Positions 8,167-54,240 of a stretch of DNA of 64,000 nucleotides are shown here, one piece after another. The notes beneath the pieces are model-generated. The model saw nothing but the letters and a program-made list of their open reading frames with translations, did not search any database and was not told the origin of the DNA. Numbering within the stretch: position 1 is the stretch's first letter; each line of letters starts with the position of its first letter. The DNA is from Hyaloscypha bicolor E (Eukaryota > Ascomycota > Leotiomycetes > Helotiales > Hyaloscyphaceae), in assembly GCF_002865645.1 (NCBI RefSeq), contig NW_020194519.1:2105542-2169541 (forward strand). The letters run 5' to 3'. Position numbers and translations under genes: made by a program.

Positions 8167-10125
8167 ATGGCTCCCCCTGACCTCCCGGGCTCTAGCCCCC
8201 CTAATATTAATTCCCAGGACCTCGGAGAGCTCCTAGAGGGCCCTATAAAATAGCTAGAGCTACTTACTAGCTTCCTACTAGCTTGGTTTAGTCAAGGGGC
8301 CCGCTATATCTTTAATCTAATTATAAATCTCATTTTCTCGGACGAACTCGCAGCCTCTTTTTCTTAGCCTAATTCAGCTAGTATGGCTTATTTGAGCCGT
8401 ATTTAGAACGGACTAAAGCGAGACCCTAGCTCTAGTAAGGCTATTAATAAGAAGTACTAAAACTATAGAAACTATTACTAATTCCAGAATTAAGCTTTAA
8501 ATAAAGTAAAAAGACTAATTTAGGAAGCTCGAGACTTAATAGTTAAAGCTATTAGAGTATTCACATTATATAACTAGTAATTCCGTCTACTAGACCTAGT
8601 AAAAATCTTTAGGAAATATATAGAATTCGGATATATTTAATATATTAGTATTTTACTAGCCTCTCAAGTTATAAACCTCGAAAATACTACTAAACGGATC
8701 GAAATTTAGTTAAGACCTCAGGCTAAATTAGCTACTTAAGCTATTTAAGCTAAAACTACTATTTCCGGAAAGCCTACTTAGGCTAAAATTACTATTTAAG
8801 AACTATAAAATTACTTGGTAAAGAACTGGATTTTAGTTTCCTATACTAGAACTAAGTCCAAAAATTAGGGAGGAAACTAAGGCCCTAGTACCCGTAATAC
8901 TAGCTTAAATAATATATATAATACTAAAACTATAGCCCTTTCTAGGAGAAGTACTCTCCTGCTAGCTTATATAAAGCAGGCTAACTTGTTCTCTATTATT
9001 ATTACTTGTAATTTACTTAATATTACTTTTTGCTTTAAGGAAATTAAGGAATTAGTAATCTCTATAGTCTCTTTTTCCTTAAAGAATAATATTATAGTAA
9101 ATACTATTCCTGAGTTTAATTCTGATTTTTTGGTTTAAAACAAATTAATTATAAAAGAAATACTTCTCTTAATTACTAGTATCTAAAAAGGAGAACTATA
9201 GTATAAAGTAATTATTTATAGTATATCTATTTATAAGTTTAATATACCCGAAGAAATAAACCTAGTTCTAGAAGAGATTAGAATCTTTAATAAGGGACTT
9301 TAGCCTATTAGCTAACCTTATTAGGCTACTTTAAAGGAAAAGCGAGACTCAAGCTTATAGAGAGCCGGCTTAGTAGTAATAGTATTTCCTATTAAGATTC
9401 AAGCTAATAGAGCTATTAAAAATAGACTTCTTATAGCCGGAATCTCTACTAAGATAATAAAATACTATACTATCTCTAGTACTATATAGTATATTAAATA
9501 TATAGGATATAAATACTTAGACTTTATTTATAAAAGAGAACTAAAGTACTTATTATATAATAAGAATTATATAACTAAGAACTATTTTTGCTTTATTTAT
9601 AAGAAGAAAAGGAAAAAATACTCTTATATAATTACTAAATAGTTTAATTACTTAAGTACTACTTATTTAGCTAGTTCTAGGCTATATGAGGTCTACTTAG
9701 TAATTAAATAAGCTATTACTACTTCTATTATTACTATTAATAAGTAGCTATATTAAAGTACTATAAATTAATATAAATTATAGTAGTTCTATTACTAAGA
9801 ATGTCTTATAAATAGCTATAGAAATAGATATTAAAGTTCTTATAATTCAGGAATCTTAAGTAATAATAGGAAATAATAATCGGGAATATTATTCTATTAT
9901 ATACCCTAGTTATTTTCAAATACTTCCGAATTATAATACCTTAAGGCCTAGAACTCTAGTTTATATAGCTCGTAAGCTATAAGCTAGTTTAGCCCAAAAC
10001 TTACTAAGTAATCCTAATTACTTAATTATAGACTTAAGTCTAGATATACTAAAAATATAGCTAATTAATTTCTATAATATAGTTTACTCAGAAAACCCTA
10101 ATAGTATATTAATTATATTAAGAAA
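8167..10125 (+). pseudogene. LINE copy 2 ORF1 and endonuclease relic
   Basis: ORF1 begins MAPPDLPGSSPPN and runs with many RIP stops through the Gag-like region to degraded knuckles at about 9440-9620. The endonuclease start follows (about 9760-10125) and stops abruptly where the LTR-like insert begins. No open frame of note survives in this half. Confidence 0.75.
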
Positions 10126-44323: not shown

Positions 44324-44683
44324 ACAGCGTCTTTATTTTTGTGCTCCTGCAGAACCTGCAGTCAGACCTCGCCTCAGCCCCGCGTCAGGCGCACTGGGGT
44401 GGCACAGCAAATGAAACCCCGAGGCAGAATTAACCTGGCTAGGGGTCTCCAAAGTGTTCAGGGATTCAATATGAAACCATACTCTGTGTTAACTCCTTCT
44501 AAATCCCCAGCCCCCCTCTTTTAAATAAGATGAAACAACAATGTGGCATCGTGCGAAAGACGATGGTGAAGAATCTAGAAGAGAAGCAGGTGAGATTTTA
44601 GGACATTCTTTTCTAGCGAATCGTAGTCACATGAGCGTGCCAGATGAAACGACCCGTTGGCAAGCGACTGAAAGCGAGCTGGA
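44324..44683. other. Upstream region of membrane-protein gene 1
   Basis: Ordinary composition; presumed promoter of the minus-strand gene. It is cut at 44684 by the TA duplication and terminal repeat of the 9.25-kb element. Confidence 0.5.
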
Positions 44684-44685
44684 TA
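44684..44685. repeat. TA target duplication, left (9.25-kb element)
   Basis: TA just outside the left inverted repeat; matched at 53935-53936. Confidence 0.75.
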
Positions 44686-44813
44686 CGGAAAGCCATAAGG
44701 ATCAAGTGATCAAGCGATTTTCGAATCCGGTTTTCAATGTCTGATTTGTGGCACGTGCGCACCCTACCAAAAATCGCCCGTAACCAAAATACCGTATTTT
44801 GCATATATAACCA
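44686..44813 (+). repeat. Left terminal inverted repeat (128 bases)
   Basis: Starts CGGAAAGCCATAAGGATCAA and includes the palindrome-like GATCAAGTGATC. It ends TTGCATATATAACCA. It pairs base for base with 53807-53934; the differences are mainly C/T or A/G transitions, as RIP would give. Confidence 0.93.
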
Positions 44814-44949
44814 CTATTATACTCGTATATATAACTTATATAAAGGTAGCCAAAATAAAGCTATTTGTAGTTACTAAATATATTAATATTTGTATTTGTC
44901 TTTACTATAATATCTCTAGTACCCCCTCTGCTCCCGCCCCTGCCTCTGC

Positions 44950-46680
44950 CTCCTCTTCTCAATTACTATTAACCCCCCTTTAACTTGCGTGGTCCGTATA
45001 GTAGATCCCATGAATTGCAAGGCATATCTTTCTTACTATTATTATCCTTACTATTATTCCCTATAATACTCGAAATATCTCTATCTCTATTATTCTCTTT
45101 ATTTTTATTCTTACCCTCTTTCTCTCTCTTTCCCTCTCCCTTTATTAGTCTCTTTGCTTTATTACTCTATTTCGAGGGTATTTATAGCTTTAAAGATTAA
45201 GGTTTTATAGAGGCTAACTTGGGAAAAGCTAGATCTTTTAGTACTATATTAAGGCGGTATAAGATATATACTTTACTACTATTATTATATTTGTAATTAT
45301 AATAGGCTCAGTCGAATTTGCCCTGAACTTGTATATATTTCTATTACGGGCCTTTGGGATTCTTTTTTATATAATTAATATAAGATATAGGTACTAAATA
45401 ACCTCGAGTTTGACTATATACCGCCTCTAGATTTACTATAATCTTCGGATTATCTAAGTTAGTTAGCTTCTTTCTAGGATAAAACTTTATATCTCGAATT
45501 TCTGGTATTTTATAGATATCCTTTATAACTTGTATTATCTTATTAGGGATATTAAAAAGCTCGAGATAGAACTATTTGTTAGTAGTAGTAAGAGGAGGTT
45601 ATAAGGTATTTAAAAAAAAAAAGAGGTTTAGTAGATTTAATAAATTATTATTCTAATATTTAATTAGTACTATATTCTAGCCTTTTATATAGGGAGAGTA
45701 TAACTTACTGCTTCTCTATAGTTCCTCGAGGCTTAAAGCCTTTATACTCGAGCTATATTATATTACTTATCTTTACTAGATAGGTATAAGTTATTAATAT
45801 TATTAATATTATATATATTATATTTCTTCTCTTTCTTTAAGGACTTTTTTGGTAGTATAATAAAGAATTATATTTACCTTATAGTAGGAAGAAAGGCTTA
45901 AATAATACTTGAAGAAAGAAGAAAAGAAATAAAGAAGAGGTTAGGTATAGTATTATAGTTAAGAGAAGGAGGCTTAGTTAGAAGGAAAAGAAGGCCTTTT
46001 TATAATACCCTTTTCCCGAGAAGTAATTACAAATTCGGAGTTATCTTTATATTATAAAGGCCTAAAAAATATAAAAGAATAGATTTATAAATAATCCAGA
46101 AGATCGGATTAACTTTTCTAAGCTTTCTGCCTTATAAAGTAATAATAAATTCATAAATAGAGGCAAAGATAGAATTAATAAGCTAACTAGAAAATAGAAT
46201 TAACTTTATAAATAATAGTATTTATTATACTAGTACTACTTTTATAATAGGGAATTATAGGATATAATTCCGGGGCTAAATAGTAAATTAGGTAAGCTAT
46301 ATCTATAACTCTACTACTAATATAATACTAGGGTATAGATAGAGAATTCCTGGTTAGGCCTAAAGAATATAGGATTAGGTTAGGAAGCCTAGATAACTTT
46401 GGAATTATATAAATAGTAAGTTGCCCTCTCTAAATTTTATACTAGTTTTTCGGATCTAGGGAATTATATAGTTATATAATACTAAAAATAAGCTTTCTTT
46501 ATATATAAGAGTAGAAATATTAGTATTATTTAATAATCTAGATAATATAATATAAAAATAAGACTATATTTGGAACCCTGAAATATAGAGCTATTTCTAT
46601 ATAAAATTATAATTATAATTACTCTAGTAATTATAATATTATATTTTATATAAATGCGAAAATAGGGTTTTTATACTAGT
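44950..46680 (-). pseudogene. Unrecognised minus-strand ORF relic in the 9.25-kb element
   Basis: A long minus-strand frame, open except for RIP-type stops. It reads through LFNIPNKIIQVIKDIYKIP (about 45590-45520) and YLVPISYINYIKKNPKGP (about 45400-45345), a charged Lys/Glu/Arg-rich stretch (about 45160-45080), and ends near PCNSWDLLYGPRKLKG (about 45020-44975). I do not recognise the family. It points away from the transposase gene, so the two would be transcribed divergently. Confidence 0.5.
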
Positions 46681-46749
46681 ATAGACTAATATTTAAAGAA
46701 TTATATATTTCCTTTTTTTTTTTACTCTTTATTTTAAATTATTATTATT

Positions 46750-48456
46750 ATGACTTGCAAACTATATTATACTATAGGAGCTAATAGAATTAATCTTTAA
46801 TTATAGGAATAGTATTAAACTCAAATTAAAGAGCTTTATTATATTTAAAAAAAAACTCTTTAGGATATTAGATATGCCTTATAATTAGAAGGATTTAATA
46901 CTAGTAAGACTAGCTATATTACCTAACTATAATAATAGAATACTAAACTCCCTTCGGATTAATAGCAAGTAAAGCTTAAGGAATATCTCCGTAATAAGAA
47001 GCTAGTTAAGATGGTATATTATCTCTAGTATTGAAACTATTTGCCTAAATATATATTTCGGATCTTTAATTATAAACTCGATTATTTTAGGCTTAATATA
47101 TATATCCTGAAAATAATTTGCTACTATTATAAGCTTTAGCTAAGACGAAATCGATTTAATACCGAGTATATTAATATTCTTAAAGAAGCTAAAGAATTTA
47201 TTCTTAAGGAACTAAAGAGCGGTTAATTAATCCGGTATAGCTATAGGAGGATATACTACTAGGTCCAAAAGAATACTAGTAAATTTATATCTTATAAGAA
47301 GATATAGTAGATATTTAGAATATTAGATAAAATAGAAGTAAAGGTATGAGATAAGTATAAGAACCGGAAATATAGGAGATTTACTATAAAGGGGCCAGGT
47401 TAATATTAGTCTATAGATAGGTATAATAAGTTATCCTATTACGGCTTCCAGATCTATAGTATTATTAATATATATTCTCGAATAATAATTAGTATTTTTA
47501 TTAGTATATTAAATTATATATAAATTATTATCCTAAAGTTCTATTTCCTTTATATTAGGGAATAGGGCTACTTTCCAAAAAAGTTATAAGCTAATAAAGG
47601 CTAGGAGATACTACTTATAGCAGTTATATAAATCGAGCTCCGGCGGTTAGTAAAGGATTATAATTTACTATAGAAAAAGGCCTTTACTTATAGGCCCTTA
47701 ATAAAGAATTAGTATATTAAGATATAGTAGAATATCTTAGCTAGTAGGCTTATAAAGACCTGGAGACGGTTCTTTAAATCTTTTTATAATACAAGTATCT
47801 TTAATAGAAAGTCTTACTATAACCTGATTACTATTTAATTTATTTATATAGATATCTTTTACTAATAGATTAATAACTTTATTCTCTTTTATAATATTAG
47901 TCCGATCTGCTCTTAGTAGGCAAGGGCTAATTACCTCCGGCCTAGAGTTCTAGAAGAGCTATATAATTATTACTAGAGAGTTTATTATTATAGTACTTCC
48001 CTAATAGGAGCGGCTAAGTAATTGCTTTCTGAGCTTAAAGAAAAGGTTACGGGATATAATTATATAATATATTAAATTCCCGAAATTAAAGAGCTTTATA
48101 TAACTCTCCTTAAAGATACCGGTATTATATATACTATAGATAAGCTTAAAGCGGGGCTAGATTAAGACTATATTAGGATATATTAGTTTCTTTATTATAT
48201 TCTTAAATTCTATAAAAAGAGAGTTAGAAAGCTCCTATTTAATATTGAGCCTCTTTATAGGAGAGATAAGTAGTTAGAGGTAGTTCGAGAGGCGGAATAA
48301 AGACTAGAGAATATAATTATAGTAAATCGAGGACTAGGGAATATTAAAGAGGATAATCTTAATAGTAAGGTTTCTATAGATAATAAGGGGTAATATAAGA
48401 ATAATTTAGGGGATTTAGAGAATAAGGGAATCTTAGATAACTTGTTTAATAACTAA
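46750..48456 (+). pseudogene. Clr5-like + integrase-core transposase relic
   Basis: From the ATG at 46750, one frame runs about 568 codons, interrupted only by TAA/TAG at probable Gln/Trp positions. The N-terminus (about 46795-46960; IKELYYI-KKTL-DIRYAL, then LEGFNTSKTSYIT) fits the fungal Clr5 domain pattern (W...I..LY....TL..V...M....F..S...Y...L..W). The core resembles the integrase-type DDE domain found with Clr5: SIDRYNKLSYYGFQIYSIIN at 47410-47470 (first Asp at 47416). Next is ANKG near 47590 where the second Asp is now Asn (47593), then KN-YIKI--NIL near 47707-47735 where the catalytic Glu is now Lys (47719). The family presumably cuts and joins the element ends. This copy cannot. Confidence 0.72.
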
Positions 48457-49500
48457 TATTTGGGCTATAAAAGTTTATTTATACTAAGCTCCTTAAAGGC
48501 AATATTATAGCTATATATAAAGATATAATCCCTTTAAATTAATATAAGGGATTATATGGTTATATAACTCTATAGAATTAGCTAGCTATAAAAATGCCCC
48601 AAAGCCGGAAACTTATAAAGAGTCTTAAGGGCTTTGGGGTATCCGGACTATTACTAGTACCTGGTACTTTTTGGGAAAAGAGTATAATATATTTTATAAT
48701 AGGTAACCTATTATAGACTACTTAACCTTTAAGTTAAGCGGGAAATCTAAGGACCGGGCTTGTAATTCAAGTCTTATTAAGGTTATTAAAGTCTTTACTA
48801 GCTAGTACTATAGATTTAATATAAATATTACGGGAATCCTATAGGTTCTATCCTAATCTATCCAGAAAACATATATAGTATATCCCTATATTTGTTCCGT
48901 TAATGTTTATATATGATTCCTGAGAGCCGAACTATTACCTAAGGAGGAAATAAGAAGACTAGACTAATATCTTTGAAAACTAAGGCTTTAATAAGTCTAT
49001 CTAGAAAAGCTTACTAATTTTTCTAAAGATAACTTAAGCTCTAATAGGCCAGAAAATTTTGAGTTTATTATATATTATGACTTATATAACTAGGAATAGG
49101 AACTTGAGTTTATTATATAAAATTACCCAGATATAGAGATTCCTGCTATAAACTCCTTATTTGGATTAATTAGTTAAACCTATTTTTGATACTAAGTTTT
49201 TATTAGGGTAACTTCCTGTTTCTAGAGGCTTTAGATAGAGTAGCTAATAAGTTTCTTAGCTATTAGCCAAGACTTATTAGCTAGAAAATCTATAAGTAGT
49301 AAATAAGATTATAAAGTAGAACTCCTCTAACTATAATACTAAGATATTTTACTATAATATAAAGTAATTAGATATAGAAGCCCTATTAAATATAATATAT
49401 CTCAAACTATAAGTTTGCGAGATAAATATAGAAAGTCTTAGTATTTAACTAGTATTATAGTCTAGCCCGAAGGCGCCTGCTATTCTTTATACCTAATTTA
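48457..49500 (+). pseudogene. Unrecognised plus-strand ORF relic downstream of the transposase
   Basis: In another plus frame, a protein-like stretch reads NAPKPETYKES, then GLWGIRTIT, LTFKLSGKSKDRACNSSLI (about 48720-48780) and FLRAELLPKEEIRRLD (about 48920-48965), with RIP-type stops between. No family recognised. It may be a second gene or a frameshifted extension of the transposase. Confidence 0.4.
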
Positions 49501-50370
49501 ATAGGAATAAGAAGTACCTATACTTTAACTTAAGGAATAATTAGGACTTTTATATAGACTTAGGGTAGCGGTTTACTCTATAGAAAGAGAATAGACCAGA
49601 AATACCCATATTATATTAATCTTTGGGAGGGGTTATAATAAATACTATAACTTCTAGAATACTCTCGAGAAAGCTTTCCCGAACTAAAGTAGGCTAGTTT
49701 ATAATCCCGAAAGATCTATAGGAATCTTATATACCCGAGAGTATAAGTGCTTAAGGTAAATACTATTTGAGTTCTAACCTATAATAAAAGGAAAGTAAAG
49801 TATATAAAATAAAATATATAAAGCAAAAGTAAAATAAAATATCCGGGTATTTAATAAATAGAAAGCCTAACTATAAGAGCCTAACTATGGGTTATAAGAA
49901 CTAGTACTAACTAGATATATATATGGTAATATTAAAGGGGAGGTAAGGCAAGATAAGGCAAGAGGAACTAGAAAATAAGTTAGTATATATTCCGTAAAAG
50001 TAAACGGAGAGATGTCTAAATAGCCCAAAGGCAAGAAGTATATATTAAAGAAGTCGAGATTAGAGGGAGGAAGGCTATTTCCTATAAGAATAAGTTAGTA
50101 TATATTCCAAGATAAAGAATAGAGATACTTAGTAGTGGTCCGAAGGCTTTTATAAGTATTAAAGAAAGGGAGAAGGTATTAGAGAAGGGGAGGAGAAATC
50201 TAAACAGAAGTTAGTCTCTTTTTGGAAGTTTGAAAGAGGGTACTTCTAAAGGGCCTAAAGGCATAAGAGGTATTAGAAAGAGGAGGAGGGATCTAAAATT
50301 TAGCTTTCTAAGGAGTAAGTAGGTTAAAGACTTATAATATGGGAGTTCCGGATAAAAGTGACCCGGAAGT
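49501..50370. other. Element interior without a recognised gene
   Basis: AT-rich, purine-biased DNA with a recurring TTAGTATATATTCC motif (49979-49992 and 50095-50108). No frame of note was seen. Confidence 0.4.
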
Positions 50371-50373
50371 AGT

Positions 50374-50580
50374 AGTTAGGTACTAGCTCTTGGTGTTATT
50401 AGTAGAGGGGTTAAAGAAAGAGGGAGAGGAGGAGGAGGGGGAGGAGGAGGAGGGAAAAGAGGAGGAGGGAGAGGAGGAGGAGGGGGAGGTTATAGGCAGT
50501 TAGATACTAGCTCTTGGTATTAATAGAGGTATTAATAGAGGTATTAGTAAAGGGTAGTTAGATACTAGCTCTTAGTATTA
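50374..50580 (+). repeat. Interspersed 25-base repeat and GGA-rich purine tract
   Basis: GTTAG(G/A)TACTAGCTCTTGGT(G/A)TTA occurs at about 50374, 50498 and 50556, separated by a 75-base GAGGAGGAGG purine run (50405-50490) and by short TATTAATAGAGG repeats. Confidence 0.85.
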
Positions 50581-50589
50581 ATAGCGAAG

Positions 50590-51400
50590 TCGAAAAAATA
50601 TAGAAGAAGAATAGAGGTTTTGGAATAAAGATAGAATAAAGTTATACTTTTATAAAAATAAAAAAAAGATACTAGTACGGGGTAATTATATTATTAAATT
50701 CCATATTTACTTTTGCTATTTATTGAGAATATATATCTCTCAGGGGAAAGTATTACTTAGTATTTCTAGGAAATAATAATTTAATAATAATATTATTAAA
50801 AAAACCAAACCTAATATATTTAAATATATCGAAATAAGGTAATTATTTTTATATTAAAAATTAAATTATAGTATTACTAGATATAAAGCTATTTTAGTTT
50901 ATAGACTAGGCTATATATAGAGATCCGAGGATATTAAAGCTTACTCGAATTACTTATAGAATAGCTATATAAATAGCTAGTAATATAATAAGATAGTATT
51001 ATGCCTTACCTAATTAGATTAATAATAAAGCCCTTTATTATAGCAGATATATAATATCTGTTTTTTAAGGTATTATATAGCCAGAGGGAAAAGGCATATA
51101 ACTATATAATCCCCAGGTTCTTGAAATTAACTAGAAATTAGTTAATTAGAAATAAGTAAATATTGCTTTTTATATTTCTAATTTAATTAGCTACTAGAGT
51201 AATAAGATTCTCGATATAACTAATTTAATAATACTAGGAAATCCAGATAGTCTCTTACTACTTGTATATTTTCCCCTTGCCCTTAGTAAATTATAGAGAG
51301 CTTTTACTAATATTAGGCCTAGCTACCTCAAGAGATCCAGAGCCTTTATTCTGAGTTTCCTGAACTACTAGTGCTACCGACCCCGAGCTTTTGCCCTGGA
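50590..51400. other. AT-rich interior, possible 3' end of the coiled-coil ORF
   Basis: AT-rich with RIP-like stops. The minus-strand frame of the coiled-coil protein may extend into it, but no motif confirms this. Confidence 0.35.
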
Positions 51401-53111
51401 TCTCTTATATAGCTACCTAAAAGGCTTCCTATATAGTAGATATTAAGCTTTTGCTCTTATTCTACTAAATAACTAGCTCGCCAAGCCCCCCCTTAACTGC
51501 CTTGCCTTGAGAATCTCCTAAAAGGAAAGAGAGTATCTTTATATTTAGCTTCTCAAGATTCTTTATATAGATTTCGGTAAGACTTTATTTTTTAATTTCA
51601 AATTCCTCTCTTATAGCTTTCAAAAGCCGTACTCTCTTATTAAGCCTATCTATATAGGTATTGCTTTCTTTAATTACTATATTCCTCTCCTTTTTAAAGC
51701 TTTGTTTTCGTACCTTAAATTACTTCTTTTCCCTCTCAAGATCTGCTAGCTCCTTTTTTAATATATACTAATACCTATTAATATAACCTTTTATTATAGA
51801 CTCCCTTAGTTACTTATATTATTTATTGAATATCTCGTTAAAGGGCTTTTCGGGATTACTGGCTAGAGTAGGCTTAGTAACTAAAGTAGGCTCAGTAACT
51901 AGAATAGGCTTAGTAACTAGAGTGGGCTTACTAGCTAGAGTGGGCTTACTAGCTAGAGTTTTAGTAGCTAGAGTATATAGAGACTTAGATCTCTTATGGT
52001 TCTCTTAATAGATAATATTAAGTTATCTACTAGTATTTTAATACTAATACTGCTCCTTTTTAGACATATAATTATTTCTAATTATATTACTATTAAAGTT
52101 ATTGGTATTAAGGGTTTTTAATAAGTTATTAGTATTAGGGGTTATTATTAAATTAACTATTGGCCCTTTATATAGTTAATAATCCTATAGAGGCCACTTT
52201 TTTTTAACGGAAATAAGGAAGCAGAGTTTGGGCTCTTAATGATTTATACTAGGACATATCTTCTTTATATATTTAAGGAACTATTTAAAAGTGCGATTTT
52301 CTCTAAATAGAACCGGGAAGTCCGGAACTTTGGAGCAGGTAACCCTACTAGTAAGGTAGCCTATAGTTAGGCTTTAATCCTCAAGGTCAAGTTTATAGTA
52401 TTTAGCTCTTCTAATACCTTTCCAGATATTAGATTCTTAGAGGCAATTAAGTACCTAGCTACTGAGCCTTACGAATGTCTCGTAAGAATTGAGAAAAAAT
52501 GGGAGTTTTAAAAGGGCAGTCTACTTAAACGGCTTCCCAAGGTAGCCGATATAGTAATAGATAGTTATTAATAAGCCTATTAGTAAAGGCTTATTAGTAG
52601 GGTTATGGCCATATCTACTAGTTAGCCCTTCTTTATTATGCTTTCTCTTATTATCTTTCTTTGCTTTTAACTCTTACTAACTATAAGCCTTAGTCAAAGT
52701 TCTTCCCTGGAGCCTCGATTTCTTCTTCTTCTTCCTAGCAGAGATAAGATCATCTTCCTATATACTACGAAGAGTATTCCTAGTAATAGTTCTTTAGAGA
52801 CTTTCTTTCTTCTTCCTTACCCGCTCCTCCTTTCCCTCCTTCTCCCTCTCCTCCTTATTCTTTTAGAACTTGGCCTAATAGATATACTAATTTCTAGTAC
52901 CCACCTCTTTAGTACTATTATTATCGTCATTCCTCTTATTATTCTTGGAAGGGCGAGAGGCAAGAGGCTTTGGCTTTGGCTTATAGGCCTTCTGTGGATA
53001 CTCCTCCTCTGAGGTGAATTCGGTCGGGCTTGAGGAGGGAAAGATAGTACTATAGCGGCTATAAAAAGGGCCAATACCCTTCTGCTTTTGGTACTTTTTA
53101 TAGTAGGCCAT
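51400..53111 (-). pseudogene. Coiled-coil protein relic in the 9.25-kb element
   Basis: Minus-strand gene relic starting at the ATG at 53111 (MAYYKKYQKQKGIGPFYSRY). The first 74 codons are open; they are basic and Ser/Pro/Lys-rich. Further on (about 51780-51540) a heptad-like charged stretch, LADLEREKK then RKQSFKKERNIVIKES and IREEFEIKKQSLTEIY, indicates a coiled coil. RIP-type stops occur between. Several frame changes are likely. Family unknown. A minor overlapping frame at 53074-52817 is a shadow. Confidence 0.55.
51861..51975 (+). repeat. About 21-base tandem repeat
   Basis: Five to six units of (G/A)GCTTAGTAACTAGAGT(A/G/)-type sequence. In the minus frame they would encode a repeated short peptide within the coiled-coil protein relic. 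Confidence 0.85.
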
Positions 53112-53284
53112 AATATTATAATATATAAAGTCTTAGATAAAGGCAGTTTTAAAGAGATTAGATTAAGAATAGGAGTAAAAGGAAATAAAGATAGTAATCT
53201 AGGGAATAAGAATATAGTAGGAAAACCCTTTTATATTAAAGAATTAGTAGGACTATCTATTTCTATTTTGGGTATAGATTCATA

Positions 53285-53545
53285 TTGAGTTATCCTATAG
53301 TATATCTTTACTTATTACTACCGGTTTCGGATACGCCTCTTACTAACCAGCGACTCTATATATATCCTTATTTATTACTACCGGTTTCGGATATACCTCC
53401 TGCCGGCCGGCTACTCCAAGTATATCCTTATTCGGTACTACCGGTTTCGGATACACCTCCCATAAACCAGTGACTTCGTATATCTTAACTTATTTTTGCC
53501 GGTTTCGGATATGCCTTCTACTAACTAGCTATTCCAAGTATATCC
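53285..53545 (+). repeat. Subterminal 60-base tandem array
   Basis: Four units with period 60, 60 and 58. Each contains ACTACCGGTTTCGGATA or TTGCCGGTTTCGGATA (CCGGTTTCGG at 53321, 53381, 53441 and 53499). It lies between the start of the coiled-coil gene and the right terminal repeat. It is less RIP-mutated than the element interior. Subterminal repeats often bind transposase; that is only an inference here. Confidence 0.92.
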
Positions 53546-53806
53546 TCTATAACAAATTCTCTAATCCGATATAATTCCGTCTTTCTATATATACCTTATA
53601 TATACAAAGCTAGTTATATATTAGTAAGAGCAGAGAGAAGGGGCAAAGAGATATATAAGTAGTAGTACGGGGCTAGTATAACCTTATAAGAATAATTCAG
53701 AAGTATTATAGTTAATTATATTATAAATTATCTATACTTAGAAATATGATTTAATTACATATATAAGTCTTATAATAGATAGTAATAAAGGGACTTAAGT
53801 TAGGTA
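53546..53806. other. Right subterminal region of the 9.25-kb element
   Basis: AT-rich, no ORF, no further repeat seen. Confidence 0.4.
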
Positions 53807-53934
53807 TGGTTATATATGCAAAATGCGGTATTTTGGTTGCGGGCGATTTTTGGTAGGATACATACGTGCCACAAATCAGACATTGAAAACCGGATTCGAA
53901 AATCGCTTGATCACTTGATCCTTACGGCTTTCCG
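53807..53934 (-). repeat. Right terminal inverted repeat (128 bases)
   Basis: Reverse complement of 44686-44813, ending ...GGCTTTCCG next to TA at 53935-53936. Confidence 0.93.
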
Positions 53935-53936
53935 TA
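53935..53936. repeat. TA target duplication, right (9.25-kb element)
   Basis: TA matching 44684-44685. Confidence 0.75.
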
Positions 53937-54240
53937 GCTGGATTGCAACTGGCCCAAAAAATATGCCCAACAAATGTTGCGGTGAAGGCTGATCTGACTG
54001 ACATTCCATCTCGAATAATCCACGCACACGTGGCGAGTTGCTGCTTTCAGTCGCGCCCATCTTACAATTGAACGCTTTCGTCATAATCAACTTTTATACA
54101 TACTATCTCTCCCGACAAGAAGAGACGAACCCTCAGATTTCCAGTTCACATTGTTCGCCAACATCCAGGCCTTAGCACAATTCCACAGCAGGCTTATGGT
54201 TTGTCTGGGAGGATGGAGCATATAGAGATTGAAATATTGA
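53937..54240. other. Upstream region of the HET relic
   Basis: About 300 bases of ordinary composition, the right half of the intergenic space split by the 9.25-kb element. No motif recognised. Confidence 0.45.

What the first reader, a model, noticed from the sequence alone, without database searches (positions are those of the whole stretch)
44686..53934. A 9.25-kb TIR transposon with a Clr5/integrase-type transposase and several other genes
The sequence shows 128-base terminal inverted repeats of equal length starting CGGAAAGCC, TA duplications, RIP-degraded interior and clean flanks. The plus-strand frame 46750-48456 combines a Clr5-like N-terminus with an integrase-like DDE core. Fungal cut-and-paste elements usually carry one gene; this one shows at least two more ORF relics on the other strand, one with a coiled coil. 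I know of Clr5 plus integrase-core proteins as annotated fungal proteins. I do not know a described TIR element of this size built around one, so it is a candidate new family.
Basis: partly seen in the sequence, partly recalled or inferred. Interest (0 to 1): 0.88.

Follow-up and report, generated by a model that had tools for sequence, protein, structure and literature searches.

The report
Multi-gene fungal IS3EU-type jumping element
This is a real 9.25-kb cut-and-paste transposon, present in many copies in a fungal genome and wrecked by the fungus's mutation defence; it carries extra genes beside its transposase and fits a known superfamily (IS3EU) that already has multi-gene members.

Summary
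The element is real. Window 44684-53936 is one of 14 colinear full-length copies examined (about 9.1-9.7 kb) in the same genome. They share ~130-bp terminal inverted repeats (TIRs) and are RIP-damaged inside: pairwise transitions 8-19%, transversions at most 0.84%. One correction: the "TA duplications" belong to the element (TACGG..CCGTA). The true target duplication is 6 bp (GCTGGA here; 6 bp exact in 10 of 16 copies tested). TA..TA ends, TAYGG start, 6-bp duplication and a DDE integrase core (Pfam rva_4 above cut-off) match IS3EU. Clr5 is only hinted at. Genes 2 and 3 are not chance insertions: each lies beside the transposase in 21 of 22 loci. Gene 3 also has 91 listed relatives (29-53% identity), many in a second TIR family (8.84-9.18 kb, 23 end-to-end copies). 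A 2.5-kb "mid" module is shared, its core nearly unchanged before RIP, between families whose transposases are only ~30% identical, so it moved between them. Multi-gene fungal IS3EU elements are already described (Styx, 7.9 kb, four ORFs; TET/alpha-kinase IS3EU), so this is a new member of a known kind. Most interesting by-product: RIP stops sharply about 130 bp from each end.

The parts
44678..44683 (+). [quoted passage not shown]
44684..44813 (+). Left terminal inverted repeat, TACGGAAAGCC...
   Evidence: 130 nt, 95% complementary to 53807-53936; free of RIP signature
44969..45622 (-). Gene 3 relic (about 200 codons; N-terminus not fixed), 3' end facing the left TIR
   Evidence: Read through with X at stops. 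Beside the transposase in 21 of 22 family loci; 91 further places at 29-53% identity, many in a second TIR family. Stop codon at the same place in the second-family copy L050 and in the window, read by eye. No Pfam or PDB match
46750..48456 (+). Transposase relic, 568 codons plus stop; Pfam rva_4 integrase core, Clr5-like N-terminus below cut-off; DDE positions read in L013 as D223, N282 (D before RIP, inferred) and E324
   Evidence: rva_4 39.6 bits against cut-off 26, Clr5 13.1 against 22.3, both on the L013 copy; motif positions; 45 stops in the window copy
48494..50982 (.). 'Mid' module shared with a second transposon family; reading frame not settled
   Evidence: left edge at query base 37-38 or 46 in the second-family matches that cover it, right edge near 2530; in its core almost only RIP-type differences from L051; no Pfam match in six frames of L051
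51261..53129 (-). Gene 2 relic, about 680 codons in L013, coiled-coil-like by eye, with an in-frame short tandem repeat
   Evidence: beside the transposase in 21 of 22 family loci, plus 1 short hit elsewhere; indels of 3 nt or more are multiples of 3 in 12 of 16, p = 0.0008; no Pfam or PDB match
53295..53546 (.). Subterminal tandem repeats, period about 60 bp, 3.9 copies, core CCGGTTTCGGATA
   Evidence: similar self-matches in other copies
53807..53936 (-). Right terminal inverted repeat, ...GGCTTTCCGTA
53937..53942 (+). [quoted passage not shown]

Best explanation
Window 44684-53936 is a dead copy of a multi-gene cut-and-paste DNA transposon of the IS3EU superfamily in a filamentous (ascomycete-like) fungus. 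When it was alive, a DDE transposase with an N-terminal DNA-binding region bound the 130-bp inverted repeats, cut the element out and joined it at staggered cuts, giving a 6-bp (now and then 7-bp) target duplication. It carried at least two more genes of unknown role: gene 3, a short protein kept with this type of transposase across families, probably an accessory factor; and gene 2, a coiled-coil-like protein confined to this family in this genome. It also carried a 2.5-kb module exchanged with another family. The copies were nearly identical when inserted, and RIP then destroyed the genes but left the ends. Shown: ends, duplications, copies, shared gene set, RIP pattern, integrase core. Inferred: superfamily of the transposase protein, catalytic mechanism, roles of genes 2 and 3, direction of module transfer, and that the host is an ascomycete.
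For: Ends and copies; 6-bp duplications; rva_4 above cut-off and again in the second family; of 22 transposase loci, 20 have gene 2 and 20 have gene 3 within 10.5 kb, 21 and 21 within 26.5 kb, the wider span allowing for interrupted copies (places; count); transversions 0.02-0.84% with transitions 8-19%; a second family with TAC-starting TIRs and the same transposase type, mid module and gene 3; published IS3EU features TA..TA, TSD usually 6 bp and TAYGG..CCRTA in rust IS3EU.
Against: Every transposase copy found carries stops, so no activity can be shown. Clr5 is below its cut-off. Two of 16 copies show no duplication (L015, L024). The one second-family copy whose flanks I could read has no clean 6-bp duplication (AATATG against GTATGG). 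The transversion-phase test did not show a coding phase anywhere (too few transversions, and in gene 2 the weak tendency was in the wrong phase). That rva_4 is the IS3EU core is an inference; no IS3EU protein could be compared here.
Confidence: 0.87

Rival explanations
1. The mid module (and perhaps gene 2) is an independent transposon that inserted into a simpler two-gene IS3EU element (transposase plus gene 3), so the 'multi-gene element' is partly a nest.
For: The core of the mid module is almost unchanged, before RIP, between families whose transposases are ~30% identical. Of 87 non-family-1 mid places that I entered, 18 have no gene-3 relative within 6 kb. It sits in different positions relative to the transposase in the two families and at C55.
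Against: Its position is constant within each family (38 of 40 second-family left ends have it within 9.6 kb). Homology fades gradually at the right edge instead of ending at a clean border, and I recognised no terminal repeat or duplication of its own by eye. Gene 2 has only one short hit outside the family.
Confidence: 0.25
2. The copies came from an ancestor already killed by RIP and were amplified in trans by another copy's transposase.
For: 30 internal codons of the transposase are stops in all 14 copies. If all sites were hit alike, only about 3% of the sites mutated in L013 should be mutated in all 13 others (retentions), against 30 of 37 stops. Ends are intact while genes are dead.
Against: A model with site-to-site variation in RIP susceptibility fits far better (log-likelihood gain 413 over near-uniform sites) and predicts about 492 sites hit in all copies (336-598 at sigma 2-2.5, 994 at 3). 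About 508 are needed if the ancestor had the composition of the flanks, so no earlier RIP round is required.
Confidence: 0.15
3. It is a new superfamily unrelated to IS3EU that only resembles it in ends.
For: No IS3EU protein could be compared here; the protein database was switched off.
Against: Terminal TA..TA, TAYGG start, 6-bp duplication and integrase-type DDE core all match the published description; Styx, assigned to IS3EU, is the same kind of element.
Confidence: 0.06

Closest known systems
Styx of Zymoseptoria (IS3EU superfamily; PMC10853768, passages read)
   Same: Fungal TIR element of about 8 kb, several ORFs beside a DDD/E integrase-type transposase, 6-bp target duplication, RIP-like mutations in sister-species copies, common origin with IS3EU suggested by its authors.
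   Different: 36-bp TIR and four ORFs (transposase, GATA, CCHC, DUF3577). Here the TIR is about 130 bp; genes 2 and 3 have no Pfam match and show no zinc-finger pattern by eye. The paper reports no Styx-like element outside Zymoseptoria.
TET-bearing IS3EU families of rust fungi and Tuber (PMC12730594, passages read)
   Same: 6-bp duplication, TIRs over 30 bp and ends TAYGG..CCRTA (stated for the rust families), several genes. The transposase and a second gene lie in opposite orientations with a third between them, and TET/JBP genes pass between transposon lineages without recognisable borders.
   Different: They carry alpha-kinase and TET/JBP genes; neither was matched here in the frames scanned (Pfam).
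IS3EU/GingerRoot superfamily in general (PMC10045372, passages read)
   Same: TA..TA termini, usually 6-bp duplication, DDD/E core, first catalytic D 100-300 residues from the N-terminus (here D223 in L013).
   Different: Whether gene 3 is the usual second protein of fungal IS3EU could not be checked.

Membership tests
IS3EU superfamily | Termini TA..TA | tested here: met
   TACGG..CCGTA at both ends of 14 of 16 copies tested; L021 and L024 read TATAG at the left end, two RIP-type changes that leave the TA
IS3EU superfamily | Target duplication usually 6 bp | tested here: met
   of 16 copies: 6 bp exact in 10, 7 bp exact in 2, 5 of 6 in 2, none in 2
IS3EU superfamily | DDD/E integrase-type core | tested here: met
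   Pfam rva_4 39.6 bits, cut-off 26; that rva_4 is the IS3EU core is inferred
IS3EU superfamily | Transposase groups with IS3EU proteins in a tree | not testable with these tools
   no Repbase; protein search switched off
Styx | GATA, CCHC and DUF3577 proteins, 36-bp TIR | tested here: not met
   TIR 130 nt; no Pfam match for genes 2 and 3
TET-bearing IS3EU | TET/JBP and alpha-kinase genes | tested here: not met
   no such Pfam match in the frames scanned (not every frame of the whole element); RIP damage could hide a weak one
Tc1/mariner or other TA-duplicating elements | TA target duplication | tested here: not met
   TA lies inside the TIR; 6 bp are duplicated outside it
Clr5-domain proteins | Clr5 domain over the curated cut-off | tested here: inconclusive
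   13.1 bits against 22.3; a less damaged relative in L029 reaches 18.9

The most novel reading that the evidence does not exclude
RIP spares a fixed outer strip (about 130 bp) of each copy where it meets unique DNA, and this strip is just the transposon's TIR. RIP thus kills the genes but leaves dead copies as substrates that any living IS3EU transposase in the same nucleus could move. Meanwhile IS3EU families swap whole modules, so a family can regain working genes from another. In this reading, long TIRs are a way of living with RIP.
Probability: 0.25. Interest if true: 0.65.

Novelty: new member of a known kind. Interest (0 to 1): 0.45.

Why it matters
It adds a further lineage of large multi-gene fungal IS3EU elements beside Styx and the TET-bearing families. 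It has an accessory gene conserved across families and a module traded between transposon families that are otherwise far apart. The sharp end of RIP at the TIR is testable in any RIP-competent fungus and bears on why RIP-killed elements could remain mobile.

Tried and rejected
Pre-burst RIP (transposase dead before amplification) looked strong at first: 30 internal stops common to all 14 copies. A model with variable site susceptibility explains it without an earlier round, so I dropped it as a claim and list it as a rival.

My alignment of 14 copies still starts those two four bases late.

Transversions by codon phase as a coding test: no window reached significance (lowest p 0.077) because there are almost no transversions; near gene 2 the tendency was in the wrong phase. 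TGA-free runs were not informative. The frame of the mid module could not be settled.

Ends round the distant rva_4 relatives: no convincing TIR in the short flanks of L029, L031, L032 and L048 (one search left L048 out). For L032 the ends appeared only after more flank was fetched.

Paper look-ups 22, 26, 30, 38 and 40 timed out (40 was answered on repeating); 39 was a term error; 42, 64, 65 and 72 are papers not held. I saw search listings and passages only, no whole paper. That no described element matches this gene set rests on those alone.
Full report
What is there. The inverted repeats are real: 44684-44813 and 53807-53936, 130 nt, 95% complementary. The window lies at C5:2105542-2169541 of an 82.0-Mb, 76-contig genome. 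A search with the left repeat listed 40 scored matches out of 112 candidates, many in pairs 9.1-9.7 kb apart. The first 35 positions as a pattern with up to 3 mismatches give 43 places and none with the pattern reversed. That pattern misses part of the family: L013, for one, is not in its list. I fetched 20 stretches. Fourteen copies, the window's included, span the element end to end and align at 9,073-9,679 bases. L019 and L020 are 0.7-kb pieces sharing only about 100 bp at each end with the long element, and one search lists further close pairs of ends.

Target duplication. The TIR begins TACGG and ends CCGTA in 14 of 16 copies (12 long, 2 short). In L021 and L024 the left end reads TATAG, two RIP-type changes. 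Outside the TIR, 6 bp are exactly repeated in 10 of 16 copies, 7 bp in 2 (L017, L025), 5 of 6 in 2 (L020; L021, GCTTAA against GCTTGA), and none in 2 (L015, L024). L021 sits inside the TIR of another copy: both its flanks read on as TIR sequence.

RIP and age. Between the 14 copies transitions run from 8.3 to 19.2% and transversions from 0.02 to 0.84%; the window differs from L010 by 9.2% transitions and 0.08% transversions. Copies were thus close to identical when inserted, and RIP did the rest. All 14 share 30 internal stop codons in the transposase. That first suggested an ancestor already killed, but a model with variable susceptibility of sites predicts about 492 sites hit in every copy (336 at sigma 2, 994 at sigma 3). 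About 508 are needed if the ancestor had the dinucleotide make-up of the flanks. So an earlier RIP round is not needed.

The spared ends. Pooled over 12 copies, the TIRs hold 12.0% CpA+TpG and 5.3% TpA, the interior 1.8% and 18.8%. The flanks hold 12.3% and 6.1%. The change falls between 120 and 160 bp from either end. By the same counting, retention of CpA/TpG sites is 77% (15 sites) and 83% (16 sites) in the two TIRs against 23% (506 sites) inside. The left TIRs of L021 and L024, which abut another copy's TIR instead of unique DNA, retain 33% and 60%, the lowest and second lowest of all 14 left TIRs. L021's right TIR, beyond which only a short TIR remnant follows, retains all its sites. This hints at an edge effect of RIP, but two cases are few. 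Second-family TIRs are 92-100% alike in the 40 matches scored of 195 candidates, a listing biased to the best.

Genes. The plus-strand frame 46750-48456 has 45 stops in the window. L013, the copy with the highest G+C, read with X at its stops, matches Pfam rva_4 (integrase core) at 39.6 bits, cut-off 26, and Clr5 at 13.1, cut-off 22.3. A family search of the genome found 4 rva_4 matches, all above the cut-off, and none in 14 control genomes. The protein search listed 65 matches. By my count these hold 22 loci of this family, plus one 84-residue fragment (C25:160096, 60%) that I left out; nearly all others are 24-35% identical relatives. Gene 2 (minus strand, 51261-53129) is near the transposase in 20 of 22 loci within 10.5 kb and 21 within 26.5 kb (missing at C51), and has one 58-residue hit elsewhere. 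Gene 3 (minus strand, 44969-45622) is near it in 20 and 21 of 22 (missing at C40). The wider span allows for copies interrupted by other DNA, such as C53 and C47. Gene 2's indels of 3 nt or more are multiples of 3 in 12 of 16 (p = 0.0008), against 6 of 27 in the neighbouring 3' part of the mid module; part of this comes from an in-frame tandem repeat. Gene 3 has 91 more distant relatives at 29-53% identity (places entered; second stretches of one place dropped). Its stop codon stands at the same place after a conserved C-terminus in L050 and the window (read by eye). Neither gene has a Pfam or PDB match.

A second family. Left ends like C26:196803 begin TACTGAGGCC. Of the 40 left ends scored of 195 candidates, 38 have the mid module and 32 both mid and a gene-3 relative within 9.6 kb. 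23 have a right end among the 40 that I entered (41 matches, one dropped as a second nearby match), at lengths 8,836-9,182. Its transposase core is rva_4 (L032), about 30% identical to ours. The flanks of the one copy read show no clean 6-bp duplication. At C55 a third arrangement has mid, transposase (35%) and gene 3 in one orientation.

The mid module. Window 48494 to about 50982 is shared with the second family at 72-86% identity in the 40 candidates scored of 135, with the left edge at query base 37-38 or 46. Against L051 the core shows 6-22 transitions and mostly 0-1 transversions per 150 columns (one bin has 7), and divergence rises towards the right edge. So this stretch passed between families lately, by insertion, recombination or conversion; I cannot tell which. 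Of 87 non-family-1 mid places entered (whose listing was cut), 69 have a gene-3 relative within 6 kb; of the 91 gene-3 relatives, 70 have mid within 6 kb.

Known or new. Complete IS3EU families always have TA..TA ends and usually 6-bp duplications (PMC10045372, passages). Rust IS3EU end TAYGG..CCRTA; TET-bearing IS3EU carry alpha-kinase and TET genes, and TET genes pass between transposon lineages without recognisable borders (PMC12730594, passages). Styx is a 7,927-bp IS3EU-related element with four ORFs and 6-bp duplications (PMC10853768, passages). The window element is therefore best taken as a new family of this known kind, with its own gene set.

How it most likely worked. The transposase bound the long TIRs, cut with its DDE site and inserted at staggered 6-bp cuts; this is inferred from family knowledge. 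Gene 3, kept across families and ending next to a TIR in the window and at C26, is the best candidate for an accessory factor of transposition, perhaps end binding; gene 2 may help assemble or target the complex. Both roles are guesses.

Noticed in passing
44684-44813 and 53807-53936, and the same ends in the other aligned copies: RIP stops sharply about 130 bp from each end; the TIRs keep 77-83% of their CpA/TpG sites against 23% inside.
   Followed up: partly
L021:244-479 and L024:204-410: One copy inserted in or against another copy's TIR; the left TIR of the inserted copy reads TATAG instead of TACGG and is more RIP-mutated than in the other copies.
   Followed up: partly
L019, L020 and other close TIR pairs listed (C55:7389-8117, C46:369312-369993, C70:3309065-3309786 and others): Short MITE-like elements of about 0.7-1.3 kb with the same ends; L019 and L020 with their flanks have a G+C of 0.43-0.44, so are hardly RIP-affected.
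   Followed up: partly
53295-53546: About four 60-bp tandem repeats with the core CCGGTTTCGGATA not far inside the right end; possible transposase-binding or promoter repeats.
   Followed up: no
C2:2-94, C24:3058116-3058196, C26:1191455-1191489, C50:294-328 (genome coordinates): Ends of both families lie at or close to contig ends; assembly breaks or subtelomeric insertions.
   Followed up: no
window 1-41000: The first 41 kb of the window is also strongly RIP-like (G+C 0.28, TpA/ApT 1.52), probably other transposon relics.
   Followed up: no
L029:889-2223: A much less damaged, distant rva_4 relative (5 stops in the core match) with a Clr5-like N-terminal piece at 18.9 bits, below the cut-off.
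   Followed up: partly
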